From positions 1 to 42,965 of the forward strand of contig JAUIIP010000003.1 of assembly GCA_030431555.1 (NCBI GenBank): a stretch of DNA of 42,965 nucleotides. Direction: 5' to 3'. Below, in pieces: positions 10,330 to 40,941 of this stretch. The stretch is from a bacterium. GTDB taxonomy: Bacteria; Bdellovibrionota_C; UBA2361; SZUA-149; JAGRAN01. A model generated the notes under the pieces. It was not told the DNA's origin. It did no database searches and saw nothing but the letters and a program-made list of their open reading frames with translations. Position 1 is the first letter of the stretch; every line of letters begins with the position of its first letter. Made by a program: the position numbers and the translations under genes.

Positions 10330-11262
10330 TCAGCGCAGGCAGTCCTCTCCGGTCGCGTACCATCTGCCATCACTTCGAAGTGTGAATTCTTTGCGCGTGC
10401 AGCTATCGTCGGAGAACCTGGCAAAGCCCTTATCTGAAAGAGTCTGCTTTAAATTGCTCTGCTTGGTCTTCAGCTCGACGCCTGCCACGGTCATCTCTCC
10501 CACACTTCCGATGTCACCGCTGTTTCGCAGCAGGAGGCTAATCTTACCCATTGCCGTAGCCGCCTGAATTGTTAGCGCGTCGCGCACGGGCGAAACCAGT
10601 GTAACAGTCGCTGTTCCATTCATCTTCAGGCGCTCCTCTCGTCTGCCCTCAAAGCGGTTCTGAGTCTGGCCGTTAAAGGACTTAACTACCGCGTCTTCTA
10701 CGACAATTTTGGCCTTCTTTTCACCGTCCGTTCTGTCGTGGAAAGTCAACACTACATCCACGTGCGCTCCCGGTCGGGCCCATCCCTCGACTCCTGCAGT
10801 CGAATCCACTGCAATCGTCGTAGCTCGATAGCTCTTAGGAATCGAGTCCGCGATTCCTCCCAGCAGTGGTGAGTCAGACAGGCTGTTGTCGCGCACCGGC
10901 TGACCCGGCGGCAAGTCAACCTTGGCGTAGCGCCCAATTAGAGAACTTCGATTCCTGACTGCTCCCTGCGGCACCTCTGTTCGCGGCCAGGTAATCGGGC
11001 GAAACTCGACCGAGTCGAGCGGAGCGCCGTACGGCACGCGCTGCGCAGGGGCCAGCAATTCGATAGTTCCGAAGTCGAGGACAGCGTCAGCAGACACCGG
11101 GGGTTCGAAGCTCTTAATAGCCTCCACCTGAGTAAAGTGGCTTTGGATTAGTGCCGCCGTCGCAGCAAGAATGAGGGCGAACGCACCGCCTGCTACACAA
11201 AACAGGCGCTCTCTAGAAGTGATAGTTCTGCTGTTCTCAATAGAACCAAATCGATGCGACAT
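10330..11262 (-). CDS. Flp pilus assembly CpaB/RcpC-like protein, second copy
   Basis: The protein has 310 residues. A short cytoplasmic N-terminus precedes one membrane helix (about 20-42). Then comes a SAF-type region (about 65-135) with the CpaB hallmarks RYAKVDLPPGQPV and a paired segment around RATTIAVDSTAGVEGWARPGAHVDVV, close to the family's G-x-V-x-P-G-x-x-V-D-V core. CpaB stabilises the outer-membrane secretin of tight-adherence (Flp) pili from the periplasm. It is clearly paralogous to the gene at 11406-12338 along its length, including a C-terminal ELRSD/FTLRSDGRWY tail. No other Flp genes lie nearby. AGGT lies about 7 bases before the ATG. Confidence 0.82.
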   Translation of the reverse strand: MSHRFGSIENSRTITSRERLFCVAGGAFALILAATAALIQSHFTQVEAIKSFEPPVSADAVLDFGTIELLAPAQRVPYGAPLDSVEFRPITWPRTEVPQGAVRNRSSLIGRYAKVDLPPGQPVRDNSLSDSPLLGGIADSIPKSYRATTIAVDSTAGVEGWARPGAHVDVVLTFHDRTDGEKKAKIVVEDAVVKSFNGQTQNRFEGRREERLKMNGTATVTLVSPVRDALTIQAATAMGKISLLLRNSGDIGSVGEMTVAGVELKTKQSNLKQTLSDKGFARFSDDSCTRKEFTLRSDGRWYATGEDCLR

Positions 11263-11334
11263 AAACTTACCTCCAGTTTATGACCGCAAATTTACCAAGC
11301 CGAACTGTTAGACTCTGACCACCGGTCAAAGTTC

Positions 11335-11368
11335 AAAAAAAAGCCGGGCGAGGTTCCCCTCACCCGAC
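11335..11368 (-). terminator. Intrinsic terminator between the two CpaB-like genes
   Basis: On the minus strand an 11-bp stem (GUCGGGUGAGG with CCUCGCCCGGC, two G-U pairs) with a GGAA tetraloop is followed by eight U (A8 at 11335-11342). It lies 38 bases after the upstream CpaB stop codon and 73 bases before the second CpaB start, so it should separate or down-step expression of the second gene. Confidence 0.9.
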
Positions 11369-11405
11369 TCAGTCGACAGAAGAAGTAGACTAGCTACTTG
11401 CGTTT

Positions 11406-12338
11406 TTAGTAATCTTCGTTAGTTAAGTACCATTTCTTATCAGAGCGAAGCTCGAGTTCTCTCGAAACTCCATCCTGACCTTCGTAACGAACATGACCGA
11501 TAGTTTGCGAACCGCCTTTGTCTTGGCGCTGAGAGCTTCTCAGGTCATCCGCACTAACGGTAACGTTTCCAACGCTCTTTAGGTCGCTGGTGTTTCGAAG
11601 CAGCAAGCTGATTCTACCCATGGCTCGCGCAGTGTGAATCTTCAAAGAATCTTCCACCGGGGTTGCCAGGGTTACAGTAGCCGTAGAACGAGCCATTCTC
11701 TGTGCTTGATCCGTTCGCGCGCCAGCCGAGTTATTTCTCGTTTGACCGTTGAACGAAACAACTACTGCATCCTCAACTGCTATTTGAGTCTTCTTTTGGC
11801 CGTCGGAGCGATCGTGATACGTAACGAGGATATCAACGTGAGCGCCCGGAGTAGCCCAACCTTCAACACCTGCGGTTGCATCAACCTCAATGGTTGTCGC
11901 ACGATGTCCAGGCGGAATCAGGTCAGCTACTCCACCAAGAAGCGGAGTTGAAGACAGATTTGCCCTTAGGATCGGCTGGTTGGCCGGTAAATCTACTTTT
12001 GAATACATATCGCGCACATCGTCCGCTCGACGAACGGCACCTTCGGGCACCTCGTTTCGCGGCCAGTGTATTTCACGCAGAGCTACTTGGCTCAGCTTAG
12101 TGCCGTGAGGAACCGGAGCTTTAGGAGCCAGCAGCACTACCGTACCGAAGGCTACTTGCTCGACCGGCTGATCGGGCACTGCCAATGTCTGGTGCGCTTC
12201 TACTTCGTTATAACTGTAAATGATTAGTGCAACTATTGCTGCAAGAGCGAAGGTGATTGCGCCACCTCCTATATACAACAAACGCTCTCGCATCGCTGCT
12301 TGACGTCGTGGGCCCATAGAGCCAAACCGTGAATTCAT
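11406..12338 (-). CDS. Flp pilus assembly CpaB/RcpC-like protein, first copy
   Basis: The ORF track extends to 12443, but the start at 12338 (MNSRFGSMGPRR) is preferred: AGGAG sits 7-8 bases upstream, and this start lines up with the start of the paralogue (MSHRFGSIEN). With it the protein is 310 residues, the same length as the second copy. One membrane helix (about 21-43) is followed by a SAF-type region with YSKVDLPANQPI and RATTIEVDATAGVEGWATPGAHVDIL. It probably acts in the periplasm with a secretin. A 516-base non-coding stretch precedes it and an intrinsic terminator follows it. The two copies look like an old tandem duplication. Confidence 0.85.
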   Translation of the reverse strand: MNSRFGSMGPRRQAAMRERLLYIGGGAITFALAAIVALIIYSYNEVEAHQTLAVPDQPVEQVAFGTVVLLAPKAPVPHGTKLSQVALREIHWPRNEVPEGAVRRADDVRDMYSKVDLPANQPILRANLSSTPLLGGVADLIPPGHRATTIEVDATAGVEGWATPGAHVDILVTYHDRSDGQKKTQIAVEDAVVVSFNGQTRNNSAGARTDQAQRMARSTATVTLATPVEDSLKIHTARAMGRISLLLRNTSDLKSVGNVTVSADDLRSSQRQDKGGSQTIGHVRYEGQDGVSRELELRSDKKWYLTNEDY

Positions 12339-12854
12339 CTTACTTCTCCTTCTGTCTATCAACCTAACCGCTGCCGCGGCTTTGTTACTTCTTCGCCTTA
12401 TTACGCGCCTGCCGGTGCTGTCGAATTCACCGCGGCAGGCCATCTGCCTTTCAGAACCTAGCCAGTTATTTCAGATGTGTTTTCGGAATGTCTTGCTGCC
12501 AACTTAGCCGGTGGCTGATGCAGGCTGTAACCAAGTAAAACCAGTCCGAAACCTCTCCTATTAACCTGGCGAGTGGGGATTCGCCTCTATGTTCTGTAAT
12601 CGACCCGCCCCCTCTTAAGCATGAGACCTGCAAAATAAATGCCGCAGGTAAAATGCGTATTTGGAGTTTAGGTCCCCAAATTTCGGGTGCCGCTGCTGCA
12701 GCCAGGCTACGTTCAAGAAATTAGTCAGTAACTTCAAACCGTTGCCTATACCCACTTTCTATTCTGCAACATCAATCGAGTTTAATCTATACCCAAGTTA
12801 CTGAAATCAATAGAACAACTGTTCGGGACAAATACCGGTTCCACACCATTTGAT
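12339..12854 (-). promoter_or_regulatory. Long non-coding leader/intergenic region before the CpaB-like genes
   Basis: This 516-base stretch has no convincing gene. On the minus strand it holds several inverted repeats that could fold in a 5' leader: GCCTGCCG/CGGCAGGC (12407-12440, 8-bp stem), ACCTGC/GCAGGT (about 12625-12648), GGCGA/TCGCC (about 12569-12586), and a nested CTGC-TAGCC-GGT-GGCTG-GCAG element (about 12497-12524). The strongest lies about 70 bases before the CpaB start. No known riboswitch consensus was recognised, and no clear -35/-10 pair stands out. Confidence 0.5.
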
Positions 12855-35484: not shown

Positions 35485-38400
35485 TTAGTTGAGCCTAGTC
35501 GAGATGATAAAGTCCAGCTTAGAAGGATCTGTCGGATCTCTTCTAGTGCGGCGAACTTCCGTAACAGCCTGCTGTTCACCAGGAGTTTCAACCGTCACAA
35601 TGCCGTAGCTGTCCGCACTCGTTTGGAACACTCCTTCGTCGTTAAGGTCATATGCCTCACGAGTCAGGCCCGAGAGAGTATCGGATACGCTAGACAGCAG
35701 ATTGCCGTTCTCATACACCTTAACATCGATATTCACATCAGTTGAACTGACATTGAAAACATTCAACTTGTTTTCGATGTCGATGTAGCGGTTGTATGTC
35801 CCAGCCTGCCTAGCTCGTCCGGCGATTGCGCCGTGTGAAGCTACCGCTGTCTGAGTCAGGTTGTTGCTGCAGTCGTGGTAGTACGCCACGCTCTGCATTA
35901 TCAGCGCTCCTGACTTATTGGCGCGAAGCTCAACCGTTCCGCTTTCTCCGCTCAGCAGCATCGCGCTCGCGTTGAAGTGGAACTGCTCCTTAGCAGCAAG
36001 TGCGACAGAGCTTGAGCCAACCTCAAGGCCGGCGGAGTTTCTGAACGTCGCCGTTGCAATCACGGATTCATCCAAAGTATTCGCTACTTCCACCCAGTTC
36101 ACCGGAGTATTGCAACCTTCGCTCGCGTTCGTAATTGTTGCGAACTGCTTAGCTGCGGTTCCTCTGATACCAGGTGCTGCGAAAGCATAGTTGTAAGTGA
36201 GTGCTTCCGAGCCGCCTGCATGGTTCGAGCTGTAGCGAGACACGGTCATCGTGTAGTTCGTGTCGCCTTCATACGGAATTACTTCCGCAAGATAGACTCC
36301 CTGACCGTTTTCGTGTCCGGCGTTCAAGTCACGCTCGCCCATCGGAGGAACCGGCATCCAGTAGGTAGCGATCTTCTCTCCAGCCTGATTATACAGGTTG
36401 TATTGGAAGATGCGCTCAACCGGGTCGAGATTGATAATCTCGGTCCAGTTAGGAACCAGATATCCCATTCCCTGCGGGTCAAACGAGTTGCCCATCGCGA
36501 ACGTCTTGCCCTTAACAGCATTTCTCAGCTGCTTAGCCATGACAAACGAGAAGTTCAATCCATCCGGGTCTGGTCGGTAGTTTGTCATGCGGCCTGCGAG
36601 TGAAGCAGTCTTGCGGTCTTCACCGTCAAGCGCAGTCCAGTCAATCCTAACGATTCCATATGTATCCTTGTTGACAGCCAAAGGATTGATGTCGACATGG
36701 AACTCCTGTCCTGCATCGAGCACCACCTGCTGCGTATTGGTTACGTTTCCGTTGATGTCGAACACCGTCACCAGTGCACTAACGCCCTCGGTTCCGTCTG
36801 CCGTTAACTCAAGATAGTTAACCTGGGACAGATAAGTGTTCCACTTCGCAAACGCCGGGCTTTGAAGATCCGGCTGGAAGCTGCCTGGGTCACAAGGGTC
36901 AGTCCCTTCCTCCAGCTCAACTTCATCAGGAATGCCGTCGCCGTCGCAGTCATTGATCTCACCTGCTCGATGACCCTGGTCGACGTTGCTTCTAGTGCAT
37001 TCGTCGCCGCCTGCATCCAGCCCGATTACTCCGTAGTCGTAGATTACGTTCGGCACCGCCGATACATCATCAAACGTCATAGTAGCCTGTCCGGTCGTCG
37101 GAATCGGGCCCGCAATATCGAGCGGGCTGGTGAACACGCTGCCGCCGGTCTCGACGCGGTAAAGCTGATACGAGACAGCACATGCTTCAGTTGTCCACTC
37201 AAGACGAACGAAGTCGTCAAAGGTTCCGTCCGACGCATCGATTTCTATATCGGGATTTCCGAGCGAGCAGATAGCGCTTACGCACTTCAGAACGAAGTTC
37301 TGATTCACTGCGTTAGCTCCCGCGACCACAACCGGGTTCGGATCGCTAATCACTTCGAATCCTTCCTTACTCGCAGTCAGCGTATAGGTTCCGCTCGGCA
37401 CAGAGTTAAGCGTATACTGCCCGGCTCCGTTCGTAGCAGTGCTGCCCACACTTGAGCTAATGACCACTCCCTCAAGCGGTGACCCGGTTTCATCAACCGT
37501 AGTGATTCCGCTAATCGAGAAAACAGCCACACACTCGCCGCCGATAAAGGCGTAGCCGGAAGCACACGCAAGCAGGAAGTTCTGGTTTTCCTGATTAGCG
37601 CCGGCAACAACTATCGGGTTAGGGTCGCTGACAACAACGTAGCCCGGCTTGCTCGCGCTAAGCGTATAGCTGCCGTTCGGAACGCCGCCGTAGCTGTAAG
37701 TGCCGTTAGCTGCAGTGGTCGTCGTCCCGATGCTTCCGCTGATTGTCACACCAGCTACCGGTTGGCTGCTGCCCGACATTAATGCACTTCCGCTAATAGT
37801 ATAAACAGGCAGACACTCGGCTTTACGCTGAACGTATCCTGCAGCACAAGCCAAGAGGAAGTTCTGATTCTCAGCATTCGCACCATCTACAACTATCGGA
37901 TTCGGGTCGCTGATTACGATGTAGCCCGGCTTGCTCGCCGAAAGTGAATAGGTTCCGTTAAGTATGTTGTTAAAGCTATACGAGCCGTTCGAAGCAGTAG
38001 TGGCTGATCCGATGCTGCCGCTGATTGCAACGCCTGCAACCGGGTAATTACCCGAGGCCATCAGCGCCCTACCGCTAATCGTAAACGCCGGCAGACATTC
38101 TCCGTCTTTCTCGATGTATCCCTCGGCGCAGGCCAGAATGAAGTTCTGATTCTCAGCGTTGCCGCCCGAAACGACAATCGGGTTGGGATCGCTGATGACT
38201 ATGTAGCCCGGCTTGTTTGCATTCAGCGTATATGAGCCGTTTGCTACATCGTTAAAGGAGTATTCACCGCTGCCGTTGGTGCTGGTTGACCCGAGGCTTC
38301 CGCTAATAGTTACACCGGAAACTGGCTCACCGCTTCCCTCAAACAGAGCTCGGCCGCTGATAGAATAAGTATCGGGCTCACGGCAATAAACTAGGTTGTC

Positions 38401-39009
38401 CACCGCGCCGGAAGACGCAAAGTGCACCTTCAACTTCGTCAGGCCGACAGCCAGAGAACTGATGTCGATTGTCTGAACTGAGTTGTCACCCAGCTCTGGA
38501 ATTGGAATATTGAAAACTTGGCTGGAGCCGATGTAGCCGCGAATGGTTCCTGTCTGCGGCCCTTCCATGTCGATGATAGTAACTTCTGATACGTCTGTCG
38601 GCTCGTCGAAGTGGAAATAGATTCGCCCGCCGCCCGCTTCGTCGTCCGGGTCATCGACCAGCCCGTCTGCCGGGTTGTTATCTACAACGTCTTCAGCAAC
38701 GATGAGAATGTTGCCGAGCGGCGTATTATTGCCGTAGCCATAGCCCGGCGTGGCTAAGTCCGGGTCACCGCCCGTGGGGTGAGCGCTGTCGAAGATGATT
38801 GCCTGGTTCGGACCACCACCGGTGTTGACGGTGCTGACGGTAAATCCGTCCGATGCTGAAAACTGATTGTTTATTTTTGTTCCGGCAGGATATCCGGAAA
38901 AGTCTACAGTCTCGCAATCAGATACTATCGCGTGCGCTGCACTTCCTCCGAAACCAACTACACTTATGAAAACCAAAGTAAGAAATCTAAAAAACAGGCG
39001 GGTCATCAT
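35485..39009 (-). CDS. Large secreted repeat protein with CarboxypepD_reg-like repeats
   Basis: The protein is about 1,174 residues. The track starts at a TTG; the ATGs at 39009 or 39006 are better (GAGAG upstream). A signal peptide (to about residue 28, SAAHA) leads to a beta-rich domain (about 30-213) with GGDPDLATPG and DPDDEAGGGRIYFHFDEP, a pattern common in exported anchor-type proteins. Four tandem repeats of 94 residues follow (see repeat entry), with a carboxypeptidase-regulatory-like beta-sandwich. After them come an FN3-like part, a calcium-binding DCDGDGIPDEVELEEGTDPCD element (thrombospondin type 3 style) and a C-terminal region of about 430 residues without a recognised fold. No sorting motif was seen. 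It is probably an adhesin or matrix protein. Confidence 0.87.
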   Translation of the reverse strand: MMTRLFFRFLTLVFISVVGFGGSAAHAIVSDCETVDFSGYPAGTKINNQFSASDGFTVSTVNTGGGPNQAIIFDSAHPTGGDPDLATPGYGYGNNTPLGNILIVAEDVVDNNPADGLVDDPDDEAGGGRIYFHFDEPTDVSEVTIIDMEGPQTGTIRGYIGSSQVFNIPIPELGDNSVQTIDISSLAVGLTKLKVHFASSGAVDNLVYCREPDTYSISGRALFEGSGEPVSGVTISGSLGSTSTNGSGEYSFNDVANGSYTLNANKPGYIVISDPNPIVVSGGNAENQNFILACAEGYIEKDGECLPAFTISGRALMASGNYPVAGVAISGSIGSATTASNGSYSFNNILNGTYSLSASKPGYIVISDPNPIVVDGANAENQNFLLACAAGYVQRKAECLPVYTISGSALMSGSSQPVAGVTISGSIGTTTTAANGTYSYGGVPNGSYTLSASKPGYVVVSDPNPIVVAGANQENQNFLLACASGYAFIGGECVAVFSISGITTVDETGSPLEGVVISSSVGSTATNGAGQYTLNSVPSGTYTLTASKEGFEVISDPNPVVVAGANAVNQNFVLKCVSAICSLGNPDIEIDASDGTFDDFVRLEWTTEACAVSYQLYRVETGGSVFTSPLDIAGPIPTTGQATMTFDDVSAVPNVIYDYGVIGLDAGGDECTRSNVDQGHRAGEINDCDGDGIPDEVELEEGTDPCDPGSFQPDLQSPAFAKWNTYLSQVNYLELTADGTEGVSALVTVFDINGNVTNTQQVVLDAGQEFHVDINPLAVNKDTYGIVRIDWTALDGEDRKTASLAGRMTNYRPDPDGLNFSFVMAKQLRNAVKGKTFAMGNSFDPQGMGYLVPNWTEIINLDPVERIFQYNLYNQAGEKIATYWMPVPPMGERDLNAGHENGQGVYLAEVIPYEGDTNYTMTVSRYSSNHAGGSEALTYNYAFAAPGIRGTAAKQFATITNASEGCNTPVNWVEVANTLDESVIATATFRNSAGLEVGSSSVALAAKEQFHFNASAMLLSGESGTVELRANKSGALIMQSVAYYHDCSNNLTQTAVASHGAIAGRARQAGTYNRYIDIENKLNVFNVSSTDVNIDVKVYENGNLLSSVSDTLSGLTREAYDLNDEGVFQTSADSYGIVTVETPGEQQAVTEVRRTRRDPTDPSKLDFIISTRLN
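37276..38367 (-). repeat. Four tandem 282-bp (94-residue) repeats
   Basis: Unit starts fall at 38367, 38085, 37803 and 37521, exactly 282 bases apart; the fourth unit is shortened at its end. Each begins with [FY]-[ST]-ISG and contains KPGYIVISDPNPIVV-like and ENQNFLLACA-like segments. The fourth is the most diverged (ITTVDETG, KEGFEVISDPNPVVV). Confidence 0.9.
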
Positions 39010-39196
39010 CAACTCTCATCTCTATTAACACCACGCTCAGCACCAGAATGACCCCGCAGGCCGCTCCTACACTGAGCAATCTCTAGTCGAGTAAGAAGGC
39101 AGAGCTGCTTCACGAAAAATTTGCACTATTTTAGGGCGCTTATTCTAGCTAAGTGCCCACAGATCCGAACAGATTCGATCAGGCTTAGGAGCGCCG

Positions 39197-39224: not shown

Positions 39225-39776
39225 TCAGCGAGCAGGACGGCATTTGTTGTTCCGGCACGCACAGTCGAACTGCTTGCCCGGAGAAAGGATGCAATGGGTA
39301 GTGCAGTCTGCAACTTCGCGCCAGGCAAGCGGCTGACAGCTGCCGCAGCAGTAATAGCATTCTGCGTCAGTTCTGCAGTCGACTGCCTTCTCTTTCAAGT
39401 AGCACCGGTTGTTCTTACAGCCGCAAATCTGATTAAACGGCTTTTCACATTCTTCGTAGTATTCGTAGTCGATAGTTGGCTCTTGCTTGAGTGCCGCTCT
39501 TTCAGCTTCAGTGAATTTCGAAATGTCCGGCTTGCACGACTTCAGTCCGCAAGGCATGCAATCCGAGTCCTGATTGCAGTCGTAGTCGTAAAGCGGAATC
39601 TTCCGGCTGCAAACACCGCTGCCTGGACACTTCGACTGCTGCTCCTTCCAGGTGCCGCCAATCGCCTCACATATATCCGAGTAATCAGGCGGACACGGAG
39701 GAGTCGCCAAGGCGAAAGGGGCTGGAAAAACAGAGCTCAGCAATACAGCGCAAACCAACAATCGCTTTATTCGCAT
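39225..39776 (-). CDS. Secreted cysteine-rich protein
   Basis: The protein has 183 residues from the ATG at 39776; the track's start at 39794 is a GTG without support. MRIKRLLVCAVLLSSVFPAPFALA is a signal peptide with cleavage near residue 25. The mature chain of about 158 residues holds 22 cysteines, an even number, compatible with 11 disulfides. Cysteine spacings such as CNQDSDCMPCG, CGCKNNRCY and CRTDAECYYCCGSC resemble each other, suggesting internally repeated disulfide knots. I recognise no family. It lies between the 180-residue exported protein and the large repeat protein, on the same strand, and could be processed or assembled with them outside the cytoplasm. Confidence 0.7.
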   Translation of the reverse strand: MRIKRLLVCAVLLSSVFPAPFALATPPCPPDYSDICEAIGGTWKEQQSKCPGSGVCSRKIPLYDYDCNQDSDCMPCGLKSCKPDISKFTEAERAALKQEPTIDYEYYEECEKPFNQICGCKNNRCYLKEKAVDCRTDAECYYCCGSCQPLAWREVADCTTHCILSPGKQFDCACRNNKCRPAR

Positions 39777-39800
39777 CGTGCTGCAAAGCCTCACACAGAA

Positions 39801-40343
39801 CTACTCGGTCGGAATCGGCCTAGCAGAATTTAATACTACGTCGATTTTCTGCTGAGATTTGCTGCCGTGCTTAGGGAAATAAATCCCCTGAACGTGGAGA
39901 AAGTGCTTCCCGTCAGTCAACACATAGTAGTCGCTGTACTGCTCAAAGCCGCGGCCCTTAAACATGTTCATATGTATTTGCTGAGTGGCGCCGCTTAAAT
40001 GCTTAAGCACTACACTAGTCACATCCGAAACCGCCAGCAGACCGCCCTGTTGTTTGAGCTTGTTGCGGTGCGACATAATAATCCCGCCGAGTGCTCCGAT
40101 CGCAAGCTGCGTCGGGTTTTGCTTGGGGTTTTCAACGCGAACTTTATTTAGGGCCAGCATCTCAACAACAGTAATCTGCACACTCTCCGGAACCTCACCT
40201 TCTTCAGGCTTGGGACCCAAATAACGCAGCAAGTGAATTACTCCCTGCGATGAGTCTTTTGTTTCGTGCACGAACTCTTTGCCGAACTCGAAGACAAAAT
40301 GCTCAGTCTTAGCTTCAAGAGCGACCACTTCGTCTTCGGCCAT
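39801..40343 (-). CDS. Exported hypothetical protein, signal peptide out of frame
   Basis: This 180-residue ORF begins MAEDEVV, which is the mature end of a signal peptide whose coding sequence lies upstream but is out of frame by one base (see the entry at 40375-40393). The mature protein is mixed alpha/beta, with a hydrophobic IGALGGIIM segment at about 84 and an Arg/Lys-rich loop after it. I do not recognise the family. It lies 24 bases before the cysteine-rich gene. With the shift the protein as annotated would lack export. Confidence 0.7.
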   Translation of the reverse strand: MAEDEVVALEAKTEHFVFEFGKEFVHETKDSSQGVIHLLRYLGPKPEEGEVPESVQITVVEMLALNKVRVENPKQNPTQLAIGALGGIIMSHRNKLKQQGGLLAVSDVTSVVLKHLSGATQQIHMNMFKGRGFEQYSDYYVLTDGKHFLHVQGIYFPKHGSKSQQKIDVVLNSARPIPTE

Positions 40344-40374
40344 CGCTGGAACAGTAAACAGCGCGATATTCAGT

Positions 40375-40393
40375 AAAAAAGATAAGCTCGCAT
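40375..40393 (-). other. Frameshifted signal-peptide start of the 180-residue gene
   Basis: ATG at 40393-40391 has a good GAGGA ribosome binding site (40404-40400) and reads MRAYLF before a run of six T (A6 at 40375-40380) and then a stop. One more T in the run would give MRAYLFFLLNIALFTVPAMA joined in frame to EDEVV, a classic signal peptide ending AMA. So a single base is missing by deletion, phase variation or sequencing error. Confidence 0.75.
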
Positions 40394-40476
40394 TAAAAGT
40401 CCTCGGATTATGCGGATAAAAAGATGTGATTCGATGATACTCCGGGAATCTTCACCGAAGCAAGGCACAGAGAAAG

Positions 40477-40941
40477 TCAGCGCATTTCGTCTGCTATTGC
40501 ATCCTGCACGCCGGGTTTTTGCATGCAGAGCAGCTCATACATGTAGTCAATTTCATTTAGACTCATGTTTGCGGTGTAGATTGTTACGCTAAGGACTAAA
40601 TCGTAATTTACGAGAGAGAGTTTCGCGCCTATCAGCGTATCAGCCACAGCTAATGCCGCGGCTAAACACTTCTGACTGTCCTTCAAGGGAACCGTCAGCA
40701 CATTTACCCCCATATACAGCGTAGTCTCAGCCGGGCGATTTAGTCCCTCAAGGCTGACTTCAAGTTCTTCGTCGCCGTTTAAGGGAACTGACCAGCTGGC
40801 AATGTCGCCCGTTCGCTGCTGCAGACACTCGGCGGGATCGAAGCCGCGGCGCACCATAAACTCCTCGACGAGTCTAAGCGGTTGCTTCCCTCCGGTAATC
40901 TTGCGAATCCGGTTTGCAGGCATTCTGCGAACTTTTGCCAT
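40477..40941 (-). CDS. YbjN-like small protein
   Basis: The 154-residue soluble protein has a basic N-terminus (MAKVRRMPANRIRKI), and a beta-rich centre with ETTLYMGVNVLTVPL then an alternating hydrophobic segment and a helical C-terminus (LNEIDYMYELLCMQ). The order (N-terminal helices, strand set, helix pair) resembles YbjN/type III chaperone-like folds, which I infer only weakly. It lies 112 bases after the GT4 glycosyltransferase on the same strand and before the exported proteins. There is no signal peptide. GAGAG is about 10 bases before the ATG. Confidence 0.6.
   Translation of the reverse strand: MAKVRRMPANRIRKITGGKQPLRLVEEFMVRRGFDPAECLQQRTGDIASWSVPLNGDEELEVSLEGLNRPAETTLYMGVNVLTVPLKDSQKCLAAALAVADTLIGAKLSLVNYDLVLSVTIYTANMSLNEIDYMYELLCMQKPGVQDAIADEMR

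What the first reader, a model, noticed from the sequence alone, without database searches (positions are those of the whole stretch)
40341..40404. One-base slip in a T6 tract cuts a perfect signal peptide off its gene
Seen: upstream of the 180-residue ORF is GAGGA, then ATG, then MRAYLF, six T and a stop. Adding one T joins it in frame to FLLNIALFTVPAMA and the mature protein. Known: homopolymer runs in surface-protein genes can be phase-variable, and homopolymers are also common sequencing-error sites. Inference: either the protein is switched on and off by slippage, or the assembly has a one-base error; transcriptional slippage is a third option.
Basis: partly seen in the sequence, partly recalled or inferred. 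Interest (0 to 1): 0.6.

Follow-up and report, generated by a model that had tools for sequence, protein, structure and literature searches.

The report
One-base break in secreted-protein leader
An ordinary gene for an exported protein of unknown function has lost one base in its secretion signal in this metagenome-assembled genome. The loss is probably a sequencing or assembly error or a recent chance mutation, because its only known relative has an intact signal and lacks the T-run.

Summary
On the minus strand, GAGGA (40404-40400) precedes ATG (40393-40391), then MRAYLFY and TGA (40372-40370), with T6 at 40380-40375. One more base there would join this leader to the 180-residue ORF. The only relative found, in the one same-genus genome (HKST-UBA19), lies in the same gene order. 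It has an intact signal peptide, MRAYLTLAVLFFLPTVPTLA, behind the same start region. So the upstream ATG is the ancestral start and the window lacks one base. The T6 is not conserved: the relative reads TTGACCCTTGCG there. Six T is below the 7-T minimum reported for slippage by E. coli RNA polymerase (PMC6260861) and below the 7-nt cut-off used in a survey of phase-variable frame breaks (PMC3711429). The -1 heptamer U UUU UUA is present but out of phase. Among 96 gene pairs (31,311 codons) no other convincing frame break was found, and about 46 other runs of six or more lie in intact frames. Best reading: an unprogrammed one-base loss, either assembly error or recent mutation, which cannot be separated without reads. 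It is not a switch or recoding site. Interest is low.

The parts
40400..40404 (-). GAGGA, Shine-Dalgarno-like, 6 nt before ATG 40393
   Evidence: sequence; conserved as GAGGACTATCT-ATG in the relative
40370..40393 (-). short frame ATG CGA GCT TAT CTT TTT TAC TGA (MRAYLFY, stop): start of the ancestral signal peptide, broken off
   Evidence: MRAYL identical in the relative P0001
40375..40380 (-). T6 run at or next to which one base is missing
   Evidence: no T-run at this place in the relative
40344..40376 (-). rest of the signal peptide in the frame of the mature protein (LLNIALFTVPA, continuing into M-A at 40343; AMA before EDE)
   Evidence: aligned to the relative's signal peptide
39801..40343 (-). 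180-residue ORF: mature part of a presumed exported protein of unknown family; its ATG 40343 is the signal peptide's own Met (A-M-A), not a likely start
   Evidence: 69% identical to the relative, dN 0.21 against near-saturated dS; no Pfam or NCBIfam match

Best explanation
The locus is a normal gene for a small protein exported by the Sec route, family unknown. Its true start is ATG 40393 and it should carry a roughly 19-residue signal peptide ending A-M-A. In this assembly one base is missing at or beside the T6 run, without any programme behind it. The cause is either a base-calling or assembly error (about 0.45) or a recent indel in the sampled population (about 0.43). If real, translation from the good ribosome-binding site stops after seven codons. 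Any product from ATG 40343 would lack the export signal, so the gene is off or its product mislocated in that cell line. Shown: the frame break, the homologous intact leader in the relative, the absence of the run there, and purifying selection on the mature part. Inferred: Sec export, and loss of function if the break is real.
For: The relative has the gene in the same order (glycosyltransferase, 154-aa, this gene, Cys-rich, CarboxypepD_reg protein), with an unbroken signal peptide and the same start region. The mature frame is unbroken over 179 codons and constrained (69% aa identity, pN 0.18 against pS 0.70), so the break is recent or false. There is only one copy in the genome. The T-run is absent in the relative. 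Among 96 gene pairs (31,311 codons) no other convincing frame break remains, and about 46 other runs of six or more sit in intact frames. The survey PMC3711429 expects BLAST-validated singleton frame breaks to be mostly sequencing errors. The genome is a fragmented draft of 354 contigs, 87.6% complete.
Against: Only one relative exists, so conservation of the tract within the species cannot be judged. The low rate of other breaks means that neither error nor mutation is common in this assembly. No reads were available. The scan of pairs is blind to most breaks in the first 20 or so residues, which is the kind seen here.
Confidence: 0.88

Rival explanations
1. Phase variation: replication slippage in the T-run switches export of a surface or secreted protein on and off.
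For: A homopolymer lies in the leader of a presumed exported protein; phase-variable genes often code for exposed proteins (PMC3711429).
Against: The run is six long; the cited survey requires at least 7 nt. The relative has no run at that place. Such runs are ordinary here: the 568 kb sampled hold 267 A/T runs of six, and T6 runs are common in intact matched frames (18 including this one). Phe and Leu codons of signal peptides make such runs by themselves; the relative has its own TTTTTT elsewhere in its leader, in frame.
Confidence: 0.05
2. Recoding: RNA polymerase slippage or -1 ribosomal frameshifting at the run makes some full-length protein from the broken frame.
For: A -1 slip on the Phe codon (UUU to UUU), or one added U, gives the intended peptide. 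UUUUUUA is present. The downstream RNA folds somewhat better than shuffles (z -1.88).
Against: No slippage was detected for E. coli RNA polymerase below seven T (PMC6260861); known cases use about 9-11 bases (PMC1088944, PMC4256274). The heptamer U UUU UUA is out of phase: frame 0 reads CTT TTT TAC. The relative needs no recoding. The 13-bp stem begins more than 30 nt downstream of the run, beyond the usual spacing of a stimulator (general knowledge).
Confidence: 0.05
3. The 180-residue protein is a genuine cytoplasmic protein started at ATG 40343, by re-initiation after the seven-codon upstream ORF.
For: The short ORF ends 26 nt before ATG 40343.
Against: There is no Shine-Dalgarno sequence before ATG 40343. 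The relative has an unbroken leader and no Met there, so this Met is simply part of A-M-A. Signal-peptide homology upstream would be unexplained.
Confidence: 0.02

Closest known systems
Singleton frame-broken genes of GeneTack surveys (PMC3711429)
   Same: One genome has a break, the relative is intact, and no recoding signal is conserved
   Different: Here the break is inside the signal peptide, near the 5' end
Transcriptional slippage rescue, e.g. tssM1 of Citrobacter rodentium (PMC4256274)
   Same: A homopolymer sits at a frame break and one added base restores the frame
   Different: tssM1 has 11 A and experimental proof; here there are six T with no conservation
Phase-variable surface-protein genes with homopolymer tracts
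   Same: Presumed exported product, homopolymer in the 5' coding part
   Different: The tract is below the 7-nt cut-off used for such genes and is not shared with the relative; no length variants could be looked for

Membership tests
Sec-exported protein with N-terminal signal peptide | Positively charged n-region, hydrophobic core, A-x-A before the mature part, in an intact frame | tested here: inconclusive
   Met-Arg, best 12-residue mean hydropathy 2.15 (relative 2.33), A-M-A before EDE; intact in the relative but the frame is broken in the window; no signal-peptide predictor was available
Homopolymer phase variation | Tract of at least 7 nt at the break | tested here: not met
   Six T; cut-off from PMC3711429
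Homopolymer phase variation | Tract kept in relatives | tested here: not met
   The relative has TTGACCCTTGCG at that place; only one relative
Homopolymer phase variation | Length variants in one population | not testable with these tools
   No reads
Transcriptional slippage site | At least 7 T or 8 A for E. coli-type RNA polymerase | tested here: not met
   Six T; PMC6260861
-1 programmed ribosomal frameshift | X XXY YYZ heptamer in phase with frame 0 | tested here: not met
   Frame 0 is CTT TTT TAC TGA; UUUUUUA is out of phase by one
-1 programmed ribosomal frameshift | Conserved break in relatives | tested here: not met
   The relative has one unbroken frame
Known protein family | Pfam or NCBIfam match | tested here: not met
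   None up to E = 1; PDB best E = 1.2

The most novel reading that the evidence does not exclude
A short T6 run in the signal peptide acts as a real on/off or leaky switch that sets what fraction of an uncharacterised genus-restricted protein is exported.
Probability: 0.06. Interest if true: 0.5.

Novelty: already known. Interest (0 to 1): 0.12.

Why it matters
It matters mainly for annotation. Automatic gene calling would list a 180-residue cytoplasmic protein, whereas the relative shows a 200-residue protein with a signal peptide. It also shows that one related genome can make a homopolymer switch unlikely. The protein family itself is undescribed in Pfam and NCBIfam and was found only in two species of one genus.

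Tried and rejected
Relatives in the 46 genomes held for the class and phylum, and in the GTDB 220 contigs: only the one congener. Plasmids and viral contigs: no match. Structure prediction: mean pLDDT 39.7, too poor for a fold search. PDB by sequence: nothing. Apparent frame breaks examined and dismissed: window 11265 (conserved non-coding DNA upstream of a shared ATG); L121 near 4300 (two overlapping genes, with the relative holding a run of N); L063/L043 and L056/L130 (conserved DNA upstream of the gene); L026 13200 and 15400 (N runs in the relative). L103/L035 lies at a contig edge and was not resolved. A downstream RNA stem is only modestly better than shuffles and far from the run.

Full report
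What is there. The minus strand reads GAGGACTTTTA-ATG-CGA-GCT-TAT-CTT-TTT-TAC-TGA, with the ATG at 40393-40391, the T6 at 40380-40375 and the stop at 40372-40370. The 180-residue ORF 40343-39801 begins at an ATG without a ribosome-binding site. Its frame is open further upstream through FLLNIALFTVPA, but has no usual start codon.

The relative. The window is contig 276 of a 354-contig draft genome, 87.6% complete. Among the 46 genomes held for the class and phylum, only one other genome has the gene, a member of the same genus. A scan of GTDB 220 contigs found the gene once, on a contig of the same length (14,249 bases) titled Bdellovibrionales bacterium HKST-UBA19, so it is taken to be the same contig. 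The gene order around it is the same. The relative's protein is 200 residues with an unbroken leader MRAYLTLAVLFFLPTVPTLA. The start region, GAGGACTnnnnATGCGnGCTTAT, is nearly identical in both. The joined window leader scores against it at a level reached by 30 of 20,000 shuffles. The upstream ATG is therefore the inherited start, and the window copy lacks one base at or near the T6.

Is it a switch? Three points speak against it. First, the run is not conserved: the relative has TTGACCCTTGCG at this position, and its own TTTTTT is elsewhere, in frame, from Phe codons. Second, the run is short: E. coli RNA polymerase showed no detectable slippage below seven T (PMC6260861), nine is the length at which selection against A/T runs shows in many genomes (PMC1088944), and the survey of frame breaks used seven as the minimum for phase variation (PMC3711429). 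Third, runs of six or more are ordinary: 47, this one apparently included, lie inside matched open frames among 96 gene pairs. A ribosomal shift is also unlikely, because UUUUUUA is out of phase with frame 0.

Error or mutation? In 96 gene pairs, 31,311 codons, no other convincing frame break was left after inspection. The assembly is therefore not full of homopolymer errors, as a raw long-read assembly would be, but one error or one recent indel fits equally well. That last comparison of rates is inference. The scan would also miss most breaks within the first 20 or so residues. The mature part is under purifying selection against the relative (dN 0.21, dS about 2.1 and near saturation) and has no other damage, so if the break is real it is recent. 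PMC3711429 expects BLAST-validated singletons to be mainly sequencing errors. I split error and mutation about evenly.

What the protein is. It has no Pfam or NCBIfam match and no PDB relative, and the model is poor. The secondary-structure pattern recalls small secreted beta-alpha proteins, but this is an impression and not a test.

Verdict. A real frame break in the assembled sequence, unprogrammed, in an ordinary exported-protein gene. Low interest.

Noticed in passing
window 35485-39012 (-): 1175-residue protein with four CarboxypepD_reg-like repeats; the relative's ORF is shorter (1080) and tblastn pieces overlap on the repeats, as if the window has one more repeat copy.
   Followed up: no
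window 11270-11393 (-): Non-coding stretch between two related genes (10330-11262 and 11406-12443), well conserved in the relative; includes a GTCGGGTGAGGGGAACCTCGCCCGGC hairpin followed by T8, probably a terminator.
   Followed up: partly
window 40477-40941 (-): 154-residue protein without a family match, 95% identical to the relative, above the other genes compared (69-89%).
   Followed up: no
window 40285-40340 (-): 13-bp RNA stem in the first codons of the mature part; fold z-score -1.88 for the stretch.
   Followed up: partly
window 39225-39794 (-): Cys-rich small protein with its own leader, 71% identical to the relative, no family match.
   Followed up: no
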